This document shows positions 1,867-7,822 of a stretch of 64,000 nucleotides of DNA, piece after piece. The stretch is from positions 1-64,000 of the IMG/VR virus record IMGVR_UViG_3300020469_000002. One strand, 5' to 3'. Numbering within the stretch: position 1 is the stretch's first letter; every line of letters begins with the position of its first letter. This stretch comes from a virus. The translations under genes and the position numbers were made by a program. Below the pieces are notes generated by a model, which was not told the DNA's origin, did no database searches, and saw only the letters and a program-made list of their open reading frames with translations.

Positions 1867-2105
1867 TGCCTGAAGAAAAGCCACTCACAGAATGGCTCAC
1901 TTTCGGGAACGGCTTTCGTCGCACGTCGCAAAACCCGCTCGCGACTGCTGATGTCTACCCCTTCGCAAAAAGCTGGCGCTTCGTCGTCATTCATGAAGAG
2001 TCACAGAGAGTGATCTCACAAGGGGTGCGACCGACTGCGACTGACGCGAGAGCGTGCTCCAGTGCTGTGCTCTACGACATGCAAGAAGACAGCTTGCCAT
2101 GGTAG
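1863..2105 (+). CDS. Hypothetical protein (80 aa)
   Basis: Begins MMPEEKPLTEWLTFGN at 1863, in the ATGA overlap with the preceding gene. A second ATG follows at once at 1866 and could be used instead. The C-terminal half has alternating hydrophobic residues (WRFVVIHEESQRVIS) suggesting a small beta-containing fold. The family is not recognised. It overlaps the next gene by 7 nt. Confidence 0.55.
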   Translation: MMPEEKPLTEWLTFGNGFRRTSQNPLATADVYPFAKSWRFVVIHEESQRVISQGVRPTATDARACSSAVLYDMQEDSLPW

Positions 2106-2308
2106 ACGCTCGACGAAAGATCGTGACTGCGCACTGTGCAACGTGCGGGAAGAAAGCCCGTCTCACGTTCTTGTCGAAGTGCTGCACGATGCATTGTGCT
2201 GCCCGAGAAATGCTTGCTCGAATCAGCGCGGGTGACCCCGCTCACTGTCGATTCTGCGGAGAGTACAACTTCATTCGATGCTGTCGCTGGCAAGGAGTGG
2301 AGGAATGA
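2099..2308 (+). CDS. Small Cys-rich zinc-ribbon-like protein (69 aa)
   Basis: The ATG at 2099 gives a protein with two CxxC knuckles, CATCG near residue 12 and CRFCG near residue 52, plus extra Cys/His residues between them (KCCTMHCAA). This is the layout of a small zinc ribbon, of the kind phages use for nucleic-acid or protein binding. The stop overlaps the ATG of the following gene at 2305 (ATGA). It is the first of four zinc-ribbon-like proteins in this window (also at 2657, 26535 and 26884). No specific family is assigned. Confidence 0.55.
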   Translation: MVDARRKIVTAHCATCGKKARLTFLSKCCTMHCAAREMLARISAGDPAHCRFCGEYNFIRCCRWQGVEE

Positions 2309-3531
2309 ACTCGGGCTCGATTGACCGCATGTCTTCTGCTGAAGAACTCGGTCGTCTTGCTGTCTCGTTGCCGAACTGGCGGTGGATGCCGGGGATGAAC
2401 ATACCCGGTCATGGCCGAATCATCGTCAGTTGGTACAAGGACAAAGAAGGCGACAAGTGGCCCGACCTCGACGACCCCGCGACCGCTGGGTGTCTACTGA
2501 AGATGCTCGGTGAAGTCGTTTCTGTGATGCAGTCGAAAGACAAATCATGGTGGGTGACCTCCCCGCGACATAACGGCTGGAAAGGCGAGTCCGCGACGTT
2601 AGGGCGAGCATGTGTTCTTGCTGCTCACGCAATCGGAAAATGGGAAGAACAAAGTCATGCCGATCTACCAGCACAGATGCAAGAAGTGTCTACATCGCTT
2701 CGAAAAGCTGATTCCGATGTCGCAAGCAAACATCATTCAGACGTGTCCGAAGTGTCTGAGCAACGCAACGATCCGAGTAATCAGCAAAACGAGCTTCATG
2801 CTGAAAGGAAGCGGCTGGGCGAAAGACGGGTACGCAAGTCAAGAGTGAAAGCAGCCCAGCTTGGGCTCTTCGCCTCTCGCGCTTCGTCGAACGATGAAAG
2901 CAATACTCGACTGGACTGGTCGTCAATCGAGTACACGCCCGCTCGAATCATGGTCGAGAAGTTTCACTACTCGAAGAAAATGCCGCGCGGAAGAAACATT
3001 TGCTACGGCTGGAAGCACTCGCACGACTTGTACGCAGCAGCAGTGTACGGAAACGGCGTGAACCCGTATCAAGCGAAGTATCTTTCGAAGATCACAGGGA
3101 TCGAAATCACGAACGCCACATACGTGGAGTTGAAGCGACTCGTTCGTGTAGAACCACGTCTTGAAGACGTGTATTTGTCGCAGCTTATGAATCTGTGTCA
3201 TCGCGATCTTGCTCGTCTCGGGTATCGCTGCGTGATTGCGTTCAGCGACCCCGACGAAGGGCACGAAGGCACAATCTACAAAGCCGCGAACTTCACTCAC
3301 ATGGGCAAAACCCAAGCTGAATGGCACTGCATCGACCGCGACGGAAACAAAGTGCATCGTCGCGTCGCGTATCGAGTCGCGAAAGCGAAGAACATCCCAA
3401 TCGAATGGGCGCGAGAAAATCTCGGGCTCACAAGAGTGAAGACGACACCGAGAGACCGATGGATCTGGTTCATCAGCAAGTCAGATCGTCGTCGCTTTCA
3501 CAGACACTTGAAAAAAGAGAGAGAATCATGA
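2305..3531 (+). CDS. Phage accessory domain fused in frame to Mom-type DNA-modification protein
   Basis: A 408-aa open frame starting at an ATGA overlap with a good AAGGAG/GGAGG site. Residues about 5-115 form a small phage domain (W-P-D-DDPATAG-CLLKML, then GRAC-AAHAIGKW) that recurs in the gene at 3528. Residues about 185-400 match the Mom family: KFHYSKKMPRG with HYS at 221-223, an AVYGNGVNPYQ segment, ELKRLVRVEP, then SDPDEGHEG at 314-322. Mu Mom, of GNAT-like fold, converts adenine to a carbamoylmethyl form that resists restriction; that function is inferred here from the family. The linker between the two domains is hydrophilic and is overprinted by an FmdB-type gene in another frame, so the two halves may really be separate proteins, the second starting at GTG 2845. 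Confidence 0.65.
   Translation: MNSGSIDRMSSAEELGRLAVSLPNWRWMPGMNIPGHGRIIVSWYKDKEGDKWPDLDDPATAGCLLKMLGEVVSVMQSKDKSWWVTSPRHNGWKGESATLGRACVLAAHAIGKWEEQSHADLPAQMQEVSTSLRKADSDVASKHHSDVSEVSEQRNDPSNQQNELHAERKRLGERRVRKSRVKAAQLGLFASRASSNDESNTRLDWSSIEYTPARIMVEKFHYSKKMPRGRNICYGWKHSHDLYAAAVYGNGVNPYQAKYLSKITGIEITNATYVELKRLVRVEPRLEDVYLSQLMNLCHRDLARLGYRCVIAFSDPDEGHEGTIYKAANFTHMGKTQAEWHCIDRDGNKVHRRVAYRVAKAKNIPIEWARENLGLTRVKTTPRDRWIWFISKSDRRRFHRHLKKERES
2657..2848 (+). CDS. FmdB-family zinc-ribbon protein, nested in another frame
   Basis: A 63-aa protein beginning MPIYQHRCKKC. It shows the FmdB pattern: MPxYxxxCxxC, then FE, a second knuckle CPKC near residue 34, R-ISK-SF and LKGSGW near the C-terminus. The match is clear enough to accept the gene although it lies wholly inside the longer 2305-3531 frame. 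Its TGA (2846-2848) overlaps a GTG at 2845 that could start Mom. In phage Mu the zinc-ribbon protein Com is encoded just upstream of mom, overlaps it, and activates its translation. Com and FmdB are different families, so the parallel is one of arrangement only. Confidence 0.75.
   Translation: MPIYQHRCKKCLHRFEKLIPMSQANIIQTCPKCLSNATIRVISKTSFMLKGSGWAKDGYASQE
2845..3531 (+). other. Alternative start: stand-alone Mom-type protein (228 aa)
   Basis: GTG at 2845 overlaps the stop of the FmdB-type gene in a GTGA junction, the same coupling used by terL and several other genes here. From this start the protein is 228 aa, near the length of Mu Mom, with HYS at 41-43. It contains the whole Mom-like domain and drops the upstream domain and linker. 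I list it separately because sequence alone cannot decide between fusion and independent initiation; both products may be made. Confidence 0.5.
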
Positions 3532-3887
3532 GTGACAGAACGAAAGAAGAATGGGGAGCACTCGCAGCGTCAATCGAAGGCTGGGACTGGTTGCCGGGAA
3601 TGCGCGATGTCGCGGGCTTTCGATTGCTTCGCGCAGGAAACCCTGAAGATCAGCCAAACTGCGTTCCTGACGTAGACGACATGGCGACTGCCGGGTGTAT
3701 GCTCGAACTTCTCGGCTACCCGCAGCTTACTCTCGTCGGAAAAGTCGATGGCGTCCCGCACTACCGTGTGCGAGTTCTCGATACGAACAATGCTTTCGTC
3801 TACGCTACCGGACAAGCATGGGGTCTCGGTCGAGCGTGTGTCGCTGCTGCTGCTGCACTCGGTCGCTGGTGCGGGGGTGACGTATGA
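3528..3887 (+). CDS. Phage accessory protein, paralogue of the 2305 N-terminal domain
   Basis: A 119-aa protein starting MSDRTKEEWGALAASIEG, in an ATGA overlap with the Mom frame. It shares the architecture of the domain at 2305: an opening helix, W-WLPGM, then a DVDDMATAGCMLELLG motif, a beta region, and a closing GLGRACVAAAAALGRW helix. This conserved phage domain (a DPATxGCLL-type motif) has no known function to my knowledge. The two copies flank the fmdB/mom pair, which suggests a local duplication or a modification cassette inserted between duplicates. Confidence 0.65.
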   Translation: MSDRTKEEWGALAASIEGWDWLPGMRDVAGFRLLRAGNPEDQPNCVPDVDDMATAGCMLELLGYPQLTLVGKVDGVPHYRVRVLDTNNAFVYATGQAWGLGRACVAAAAALGRWCGGDV

Positions 3888-5764: not shown

Positions 5765-6090
5765 TGTCGGTCATCGCTTCACCGAACGAGTTTTCAAAGC
5801 TGGGAACAGACAAACGATCAAACGCTCAGAGCGACACTCTCGTGGGTGAGCACTCAATCGGTGGCCCTCTTTCGCTTCGTGACTCGCGCATGTTTCTGGA
5901 CGTTGCGACGCTTCGTCGTCTTCTCGAAGTGGCTGAAGCATCGAGCATCAAGCGAGTGCAGATCGACCGCTGCGGTTTGAGAATCAGATCATGGAAAGAC
6001 AGACACGGGCATGTCTACGAAACATGGCAGATCATCGGCGTTGAGCCGAAGCCAGAGAAGCATCTGATTTTTGACGGAGACACGAAATGA
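5764..6090 (+). CDS. Hypothetical protein (108 aa)
   Basis: The start overlaps the preceding TAA by one base. The C-terminal half (FLDVATLRRLLEVAEASSIKRVQIDRCGLRIRSW, then YETWQIIG) has a helix-strand-strand look that I associate with small phage proteins near ParB-like genes, but I know no function. The N-terminal 40 residues look disordered. It overlaps the ParB-like gene by an ATGA junction. Confidence 0.5.
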   Translation: MSVIASPNEFSKLGTDKRSNAQSDTLVGEHSIGGPLSLRDSRMFLDVATLRRLLEVAEASSIKRVQIDRCGLRIRSWKDRHGHVYETWQIIGVEPKPEKHLIFDGDTK

Positions 6091-6656
6091 TCAGCGGAGC
6101 AGAAGTTGCAGCAGTCTACGTGGACATCGACTCACTGACGCCATGGGCAGACAACCCGCGTCAAAATGAGCACGCTGTTGACCCGATCATGCGTTCGATC
6201 GAAGAGTTTGGATTCACTTCTCCGATTGTTGCTCGCACAGAAGATCGAGAGATCATCGCCGGTCACACTCGCTGGACAGCAGCAAAGCGGCTCGGGATGA
6301 AACGCGTTCCTGTTCGATTTGTAGATCTGACACAGCAGCAAGCTCGCGCGCTCGCAATCGCAGACAACAGACTCGGAGAGCTTGCAGACTGGGACGCCAC
6401 ACTTCTCGAATCAACGCTGCGAGAGTTGGGCGACTTCGATCAGTCTCTTCTCGACGTGACAGGCTTTGCAGAAGAGCTGGATTCTCTTTTCTCGCAAGAA
6501 GACGACGGTTTCGGTGATGATGGGAGCGGTGCTGGGAACGACCCGACTAAGCTCGAATATCGCGTGGTGATCGAGAATCTGGACGAAAAACAACAAGCGT
6601 CGCTCGTAGAAAAGCTGGAGAAGGAGGGATTCAAGTGCCACGCCTTGATCTCGTGA
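6087..6656 (+). CDS. ParB/Srx-fold N-terminal domain protein
   Basis: A 189-aa protein. Residues 5-95 contain the ParB N-terminal pattern: VDIDSLTPWADNPRQN, then SIEEFGFTSPIVA, the signature GHTRWTAAKRLGM, VPVRFVDL, and LAIADNRLGELADWD. In phages this fold acts as a nuclease, a CTPase-type DNA-binding module or a cofactor for DNA modification, and often lies near methyltransferases and terminases. The C-terminal 60 residues are acidic. It overlaps the next gene by 22 nt, which suggests the pair is co-translated and may work together. Confidence 0.8.
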   Translation: MISGAEVAAVYVDIDSLTPWADNPRQNEHAVDPIMRSIEEFGFTSPIVARTEDREIIAGHTRWTAAKRLGMKRVPVRFVDLTQQQARALAIADNRLGELADWDATLLESTLRELGDFDQSLLDVTGFAEELDSLFSQEDDGFGDDGSGAGNDPTKLEYRVVIENLDEKQQASLVEKLEKEGFKCHALIS

Positions 6657-7822
6657 TCTCTACTCCGCTGTCCTCTTCGACTCGTGCTCGACAAGTGTGC
6701 AGCATGTTCGATGTCCCGCCCGAGCAGAAGTGTGTTCGAGAGTGGCACGGAGAACTTCCGATAGACGAAAAGAAGTGGAACGTAGGTCTCGTTGTCGGGC
6801 CGAGCGGTTCGGGCAAGTCTTCAATCATGCGACAGCTATGGGGAGACGAGCCGAAGTTCGAGTGGAAAAGCAAGTCGATGCTCGACGACTTCTCGGAGAA
6901 TCTGTCGATCGAAGAGATCGCGAATGTCTGCAACGCTGTCGGGTTCAGCACGATCCCAGCTTGGCTTCGACCGTTTCGAGTGCTTTCCAACGGCGAGCAG
7001 TTTCGTGCGGACTTGGCTCGACGACTGATCGAGTTGCCCGATCCTGTTGTCGTTGACGAGTTCACGAGCGTCGTCGATCGACAAGTCGCAAAGATTGGTT
7101 CTCACGCTGTACAAAAGTGGGCTCGTCGAAAAGATCGGAAGTTCGTAGCGGTCACATGTCACTTCGACGTGATCGACTGGCTTCAGCCTGACTGGATACT
7201 CGAACCGGACACGATGACGTTCCGTTGGAGGTCACTTCAACCGCGACCACAGATCGCAGTCCGAATCGAGCGCATCGCGTATGAAGAATGGCAACGCTTC
7301 GCTCCATTTCACTATCTGAGTGCGCAGCTTTCTCGTGCTGCTCGATGTTTTGGGCTGTTCGTGGAAGGCGTGAGTCACCCCGTCGCCTTCACTTCGACGC
7401 TTCATCGACCACACCCGCGAGTGCATGACGTGATGGGCTTCAGTCGCACAGTGGTTCTTCCGGACTGGCAAGGAATCGGTCTCTCGTATGCTCTCAAAGA
7501 GACTGTCGCGTCTGCGTTCTCAGCGGTGGGCAAGCGCGTTCACAGCTATCCGGCGCACCCGGGCTACGTTCGATCTCTCGTTTCATCTGACAAGTGGAAG
7601 CAGGTGAAGTCTGCTGGTCTGTTTTCTCCCGCTGCCGGTTCAAGCTCTACAGTCGCAGGCTTCGGGGGCAGACCGTGTGCTGTGTTTCGGTACGTCGGAT
7701 CAAAGATGGATCTACGCACTGCTGAATCGTTGCTCGATGTCTCCGCATCAAATCTTCAACAGCGACAACGAGCACTCGTTTTGCGGAAGAAGCCATCGCG
7801 TATGCGAAGGAGAAAAAAGTGA
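6635..7822 (+). CDS. ABC-type ATPase fused to GNAT acyltransferase
   Basis: A 395-aa protein with a GTG start and a strong AGGAGG site (6622). Residues about 50-210 are an ABC-type ATPase: Walker A GPSGSGKSS, a signature-like VLSNGEQFRADLARRL and Walker B DPVVVDEFTS. No transmembrane segments occur, so it is not a transporter. Residues about 215-345 look like a GNAT domain (HYLSAQL, GLFVEGVSHPVAFTS, SRTVVLPDWQGIGLSYAL with the acetyl-CoA-binding QGIG turn). It may acylate a nucleic acid or protein in an ATP-dependent way; with Mom (also GNAT-like) and ParB nearby, DNA modification is a fair guess. The C-terminus is very basic. Confidence 0.75.
   Translation: MPRLDLVISTPLSSSTRARQVCSMFDVPPEQKCVREWHGELPIDEKKWNVGLVVGPSGSGKSSIMRQLWGDEPKFEWKSKSMLDDFSENLSIEEIANVCNAVGFSTIPAWLRPFRVLSNGEQFRADLARRLIELPDPVVVDEFTSVVDRQVAKIGSHAVQKWARRKDRKFVAVTCHFDVIDWLQPDWILEPDTMTFRWRSLQPRPQIAVRIERIAYEEWQRFAPFHYLSAQLSRAARCFGLFVEGVSHPVAFTSTLHRPHPRVHDVMGFSRTVVLPDWQGIGLSYALKETVASAFSAVGKRVHSYPAHPGYVRSLVSSDKWKQVKSAGLFSPAAGSSSTVAGFGGRPCAVFRYVGSKMDLRTAESLLDVSASNLQQRQRALVLRKKPSRMRRRKK

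What the first reader, a model, noticed from the sequence alone, without database searches (positions are those of the whole stretch)
2305..3531. Mom-type gene overprinted by an FmdB-type zinc-ribbon gene
One continuous 408-codon frame joins a phage domain to a Mom-like domain. An FmdB zinc-ribbon gene (2657-2848) is encoded in another frame inside the linker and ends in a GTGA junction that could start Mom alone. In Mu, the zinc protein Com overlaps mom and activates its translation. A similar layout with a different zinc family would be convergent. The overlap could also be a rare case of dual coding.
Basis: partly seen in the sequence, partly recalled or inferred. Interest (0 to 1): 0.82.

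Follow-up and report, generated by a model that had tools for sequence, protein, structure and literature searches.

The report
Three phage genes, one lost stop
A phage DNA-modification gene (mom) sits directly behind a small zinc-protein gene, and because the gene in front has lost its stop signal its reading frame runs on through both; the genes are real, but the fusion and the proposed Mu-like control are so far seen only in this one genome and not otherwise supported.

Summary
Frame 2305-3531 is open for 408 codons, an FmdB-type zinc ribbon is encoded in another frame at 2657-2848, and a GTGA junction (GTG 2845 / TGA 2846) could start Mom alone. All three parts are real and each is complete. 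Domain A (2305 to about 2655) is a common small phage protein that stands alone in every relative found. FmdB passes curated cut-offs. Mom matches PF25680 and the solved Mu Mom. The nearest Mom relatives (38-54% identity) are standalone, and one (L173) has an N-terminal tail alignable with the sequence just after GTG 2845. The simplest reading is therefore A-fmdB-mom, in which A lacks its usual stop and its frame happens to stay open across fmdB (4-15% by chance). Evidence for selection on the overlapped frame is weak: an apparent signal disappears when fmdB's own codons are permuted. A Com-like mechanism is not supported. There is no Com homology, no Com RNA motif, no unusual fold at the mom start, and no recurrent FmdB-mom pairing. 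A stop-loss fusion protein may still be made, and a sequencing or assembly error cannot be excluded. In passing I found that many other mom genes overlap a covarying tRNA-Gly-like gene, fitting reports that Mom uses glycyl-tRNA.

The parts
2305..2655 (+). Gene/domain A: small phage protein family (W-W-PGM ... PDxDDPATAGCLL ... GRACxxAAxAxGKW); its usual stop is missing here
   Evidence: 80 relatives in viral contigs, none fused to Mom; paralogue at 3528-3887 (40% identity); AF2 model pLDDT 86, alpha-beta-beta-beta-alpha, no significant fold match; strong SD, -8.1 kcal/mol
2657..2848 (+). fmdB: FmdB-family zinc ribbon, 63 aa, two CxxC, complete
   Evidence: PF09723 3e-13 and TIGR02605 2.7e-17, both over cut-off; relatives with C-terminal GWAKDGYA
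2656..2844 (+). 63 codons of the long frame overprinted on fmdB, a hydrophilic linker without homology to A or Mom
   Evidence: translation; chance of open frame 3.7-14.6%; within-gene codon control; lowest pLDDT in the fusion model around residues 142-156 and 187-198
2845..3531 (+). mom: Mom-family GNAT DNA-modification enzyme, 228 aa from GTG 2845
   Evidence: PF25680 93 bits, phrog_1384, PDB 8bv8 by sequence E 2.9e-10 and by fold E 3.3e-10; L173 (46%) has an N-terminal tail M-QFDIFAE alignable with QLGLFAS just after GTG 2845
2845..2848 (+). GTGA junction: mom GTG overlapping the fmdB stop TGA
   Evidence: sequence; weak SD, -3.8 kcal/mol
3528..3887 (+). A': second copy of gene A directly after mom, ATGA overlap, with its own stop
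2099..2308 (+). small Cys-rich gene ending in an ATGA overlap with A
   Evidence: ORF; only a sub-threshold zinc-finger match

Best explanation
This is a tightly packed accessory operon of complete phage genes: small Cys-rich gene, A, fmdB, mom, A'. Gene A has lost the stop codon it normally carries just before fmdB. Its frame therefore continues through fmdB in another register, stays open largely because of fmdB's base composition, and joins mom, which happens to lie in the same frame. Ribosomes that start at the strong site of A (2305) would make an A-Mom read-through fusion. Ribosomes that start at fmdB (2657) make FmdB and can re-start on the overlapping GTG 2845 to make free Mom. Mom is predicted to modify adenines in phage DNA against restriction enzymes, as in Mu. 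FmdB is most likely an independent small zinc-ribbon protein and not a Com equivalent. Shown: the frames, the families, the completeness of each gene, and the absence of fusion in relatives. Inferred: which products are made, and Mom activity.
For: Every A relative found is a standalone gene ending just after the conserved C-terminus, and so is the paralogue A'. The closest Mom relatives (38-54%) are standalone, and L173 (46%) has an N-terminal tail alignable with the sequence just after GTG 2845 (M-QFDIFAE against QLGLFAS). The 63 linker codons match neither family. The coding signal of the long frame dips in the overlap, 0.6-2.6 against 4.4-7.3 in the first 180 bases or so of mom. Open-frame chance is 3.7% (synonymous redraw) to 14.6% (own genes). 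Other mom genes also have fortuitously open frames upstream, 2 of 77 by 64 codons or more. The junctions around mom are 4-nt ATGA/GTGA overlaps. Related phages (TerL 61-64%) lack the cassette, so it is accessory.
Against: The synonymous-redraw chance (3.7%) is low enough to leave room for selection. fmdB is depleted in third-position T (7 of 63 against 23% genome-wide), as selection against stops in the long frame would also produce. The shared tail rests on one other relative; most have different tails. No sequence of a close relative of this exact cassette was found, so loss of the stop is inferred from distant relatives.
Confidence: 0.62

Rival explanations
1. Real dual coding: the A-Mom fusion is the working enzyme, the overprinted stretch is a selected flexible linker, and FmdB is made from the same RNA in another frame.
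For: Frame open for 408 codons. The linker is more hydrophilic than expected from genome codon usage (z -3.6; 0 of 240 control segments as extreme). Open by chance in only 3.7% of synonymous redraws. The model shows a low-confidence linker between two domains.
Against: The signal is lost when fmdB's own codons are permuted: 52% of control segments are as extreme when codons are permuted within amino acids, 23% within degeneracy classes. Synonymous codon use in the linker frame equals random expectation. No fused relatives in 80 A loci or about 160 Mom loci.
Confidence: 0.17
2. Sequencing or assembly error: the natural stop of A is present in the real genome.
For: All relatives of A have a stop at this place. 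Single uncultured contig; no reads available.
Against: A one-base indel would not give a normal end: the two other frames next stop at 2709 and 2846. So a substitution error at one position would be needed, which is rare in deep assemblies.
Confidence: 0.12
3. FmdB acts like Com of Mu: it binds the mRNA and switches on translation of mom from GTG 2845 (convergent regulation).
For: Same layout: a small CxxC/CxxC zinc protein (63 aa; Com is 62 aa) whose end overlaps a GUG-started mom. In Mu the mom GUG lies in an inhibitory stem opened by Com (PMC6483171). GTG 2845 has a weak SD.
Against: P0002 does not match the Com family. There is no CC(N)2-3GAG motif within 2601-3000 and no fold at the mom start beyond chance, z 0.2. 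FmdB is not a regular neighbour of mom: of 80 FmdB loci one abuts a divergent Mom-family GNAT and one has a mom about 1 kb downstream, and of 166 mom loci none has fmdB adjacent.
Confidence: 0.07

Closest known systems
Bacteriophage Mu com-mom operon
   Same: Mom-family enzyme; small four-cysteine zinc protein encoded immediately upstream and overlapping a GUG-started mom
   Different: The zinc protein is FmdB/Zn_ribbon_8, not Com; overlap is 4 nt; no Com RNA target or inhibitory stem found; an extra upstream frame (A) runs into mom
Standalone phage Mom-like genes (phrog_1384, PF25680), e.g. Arthrobacter, Microbacterium and IMG/VR phages
   Same: Same enzyme family; conserved HYS, ELxRL, FxDPxxGHxGxIYxAxNF
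   Different: Elsewhere usually preceded by a ParB-like gene and often overlapped by a tRNA-Gly-like gene; here by fmdB, no tRNA
Phage FmdB-type zinc ribbons (phrog_13665, phrog_1076, TIGR02605)
   Same: MP-[IL]-[YF] start, CxxC...CxxC, GWAKDGYA C-terminus
   Different: Not linked to mom elsewhere
Jumbo-phage Mom-nuclease fusions (PMC7824862)
   Same: Mom domain fused to another domain
   Different: There the partner is a predicted nuclease; here domain A of unknown function, and no other genome shows it

Membership tests
Mom family (PF25680) | profile score over curated cut-off | tested here: met
   93.2 bits against 27.1
Mom family (PF25680) | GNAT-like fold closest to solved Mu Mom | tested here: met
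   8bv8 top match of the AF2 model, E 3.3e-10; by sequence E 2.9e-10
Mom family (PF25680) | adenine modification of phage DNA | not testable with these tools
   needs nucleoside mass spectrometry
FmdB zinc ribbon (TIGR02605 / PF09723) | profile score over curated cut-off, two CxxC | tested here: met
   62.6 / 31.3 and 50.0 / 34.4 bits
Com-type translational activator | Com zinc-ribbon sequence family (PF10122) | tested here: not met
   No PF10122 match for P0002 at E <= 1 in the Pfam scan. The separate genome search was uninformative because its controls did not ring.
Com-type translational activator | RNA motif CC(N)2-3GAG in a hairpin and an inhibitory stem holding the mom GUG | tested here: not met
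   no motif within 2601-3000 and fold z 0.20
Com-type translational activator | zinc protein activates mom translation | not testable with these tools
   needs a reporter
Dual-coding overlap | both frames under protein-level selection | tested here: inconclusive
   signal against genome codon usage, none against fmdB's own codons; no close relatives

The most novel reading that the evidence does not exclude
Genuine overprinting: one stretch of phage mRNA encodes a complete FmdB zinc ribbon in one frame and the linker of a working A-Mom DNA-modification fusion in another, with FmdB or its termination setting the ratio of fused to free Mom.
Probability: 0.15. Interest if true: 0.62.

Novelty: new member of a known kind. 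Interest (0 to 1): 0.36.

Why it matters
If the overlap were truly dual-coding it would be a rare case of a conserved zinc-ribbon gene nested wholly inside the linker of another enzyme, and a second, independent way to couple a zinc protein to mom. As it stands it is a useful example of how loss of one stop in a dense phage operon can produce a fusion frame. The comparative work also turned up a widespread overlap between mom genes and tRNA-Gly-like genes, which bears directly on how Mom enzymes get their substrate.

Tried and rejected
Com-like RNA switch: no motif, no structure. Selection on the overlapped frame: at first looked strong, but vanished under a within-gene codon control. FmdB-mom linkage elsewhere: only L329, a divergent Mom-family GNAT abutting fmdB but missing from its sister contig L327, and L285, about 1 kb apart. 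Function of domain A: no Pfam, PHROG or NCBIfam family at E up to 0.1 or better and no significant fold match; weak dsRBD-like hits not used. Related phages by TerL: three contigs, none with the cassette. Closest genome contig with the Mom subfamily: one MAG locus, standalone. A tRNA-like element in the window: searched with filters off, none.

Full report
1. Observation. The window holds one frame open from 2305 to 3531 (408 codons). A 63-aa ORF at 2657-2848 lies in another frame inside it. That ORF is a true FmdB-family zinc ribbon: PF09723 50.0 bits against a cut-off of 34.4, TIGR02605 62.6 against 31.3. The end of the long frame is a Mom-family enzyme: PF25680 91-93 bits against 27.1, phrog_1384, PDB 8bv8 (phage Mu Mom) E 2.9e-10 by sequence and top fold match of the AF2 model, E 3.3e-10. 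GTG 2845 overlaps the fmdB stop and is in the mom frame.

2. Chance of the open frame. With FmdB fixed and synonymous codons redrawn from this phage's usage, the other frame stays open in 3.7% of draws. In the phage's own genes 14.6% of 64-codon stretches are open in that frame. Other mom genes also have fortuitously open frames upstream of their start, some running through tRNA genes. So the open frame across fmdB is mildly unusual at most. The real anomaly is that gene A has no stop.

3. The parts are complete genes. Domain A belongs to a common small phage family. 80 relatives were fetched, none fused to Mom, and those complete at the 3' end finish at or close after the conserved C-terminus. 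A second copy with its own stop lies directly behind mom at 3528-3887. A copies occur in tandem elsewhere (L105). The nearest Mom relatives (L171-L196, 38-54% identity) are standalone. L173 (46%) carries M-QFDIFAE where the window has VKAA-QLGLFAS, at the same distance from the HYS motif, which fits a mom start at or near GTG 2845. The remaining 63 codons of the long frame correspond to neither family and are simply fmdB read in another register.

4. Is the overlapped frame selected? Against genome codon usage the linker peptide is more hydrophilic than all 240 control segments (z -3.6). When fmdB's own codons are permuted within amino acids or degeneracy classes, 52% and 23% of control segments are as extreme, and the codon adaptiveness of the linker frame equals random expectation. 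The signal is therefore one of base composition (few third-position T). That could itself come from selection against stops, but the data cannot tell. No close relatives exist in the collections searched, so dN/dS cannot be computed.

5. Is it Com-like? In Mu, Com (62 aa, CCCC zinc finger) binds a hairpin next to an inhibitory stem that holds the mom GUG and activates translation (PMC6483171). The window shares the layout: zinc protein, overlap, GUG start. It fails the tests available here: no Com family match, no CC(N)2-3GAG motif, no structure beyond chance at the start (z 0.20). FmdB is not a regular neighbour of mom: two of 80 FmdB loci have a Mom-family gene within 2 kb (L329, a divergent GNAT abutting fmdB; L285, about 1 kb away), and three mom loci (L048, L056, L060) have fmdB 1 kb or more upstream. 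A Com-like role is not excluded but has no support beyond geometry.

6. Most likely working. Translation from the strong site at 2305 (-8.1 kcal/mol) reads A and, lacking a stop, runs on to 3531. Translation from 2657 (-4.2) gives FmdB, and re-start at the overlapping GTG (-3.8) gives free Mom. Mom is predicted to modify phage adenines. A 2025 meeting report states that Mu modification depends on tRNA-Gly for transfer of a glycyl group (PMC12908700), and a 2023 preprint by Silva et al. [quoted passage not shown] Sequencing or assembly error at the A stop cannot be excluded; a simple indel would not explain it, because the two other frames next stop at 2709 and 2846.

7. Side observation. While checking upstream frames of mom relatives I found tRNA-like sequences. 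ARAGORN finds 18 tRNA-Gly and 6 unassigned tRNA-like genes among 33 tRNAs in 166 mom loci (some loci are overlapping fetches of the same contig), and no tRNA-Gly among 17 in control loci. A covariance model built from 18 of them hits 53 times in 94 mom-locus sources and 2 times in 81 control sources. All mom-locus hits are on the mom strand, and 38 of the 47 stronger ones lie within 140 nt of the mom stop, mostly inside the last 100 nt of the open mom frame. The cloverleaf is supported by changes on both sides in 15 of 22 pairs and a covariation score of 0.57 against 0.17 shuffled. Of the 18, 13 lie at the mom 3' end. In another group (L184, L186, L189, L191-L196) the element sits at the 5' end and the mom frame reads through it; there the anticodon loop is [A/U]UUCCA in those whose fold I inspected. 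This fits glycyl-tRNA as the Mom donor and suggests many phages carry a dedicated tRNA-Gly overlapping mom. Whether the overlap has been described I could not check. The window and the rest of its record have no such element.

8. Verdict. Observation correct; interpretation partly supported. The best account is three complete genes with one lost stop. Overprinting as a selected feature stays possible at about 15%.

Noticed in passing
L006, L008, L009, L020, L021, L023, L025, L028, L034, L048, L056 and about 40 more mom loci (3' end of mom): A covarying tRNA-Gly-like gene overlaps or abuts the 3' end of many phage mom genes (covariance model: 53 hits in 94 mom-locus sources, 2 in 81 controls). 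Fits glycyl-tRNA as Mom donor (PMC12908700). Absent from this window.
   Followed up: partly
L184:162-237, L186:77-153, L189:2454-2529, L191:2415-2489, L194:2481-2555, L195:2487-2561, L196:1223-1298: In one Mom subgroup the tRNA-like element lies at the 5' end, with a 6-nt anticodon loop [A/U]UUCCA in those inspected, and the mom frame reads straight through it, with no ATG, GTG or TTG between it and the Mom domain.
   Followed up: partly
window 2857-2871 (QLGLF) and L173 (QFDIF): QLGLF near the Mom N-terminus fits the bacterial beta-clamp-binding motif QLxLF (PMC11139829). Similar motifs in 3 of 58 distinct Mom tails against 0.4 expected by shuffling. It may tether Mom to replication.
   Followed up: partly
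window 6087-7822: ParB-like gene overlapping a P-loop/ABC-type ATPase gene (phrog_11143) with an FHYLS stretch that recalls Mom (by eye), just before the terminase; absent from the related phages L333 and L335.
   Followed up: no
L008, L020, L022, L030, L052, L059 and many other mom loci: Mom genes are commonly preceded by a ParB-like gene that ends in a CPxCGHEF-type zinc knuckle and overlaps the mom start.
   Followed up: no
L329:1134-1780: A phage fmdB abuts a divergent Mom-family GNAT gene (TAATG junction) that is absent from the sister contig L327.
   Followed up: partly
window 2305-2655, 3528-3887; L105: The domain A family occurs in tandem copies in phages; function unknown, alpha-beta-beta-beta-alpha model.
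   Followed up: partly
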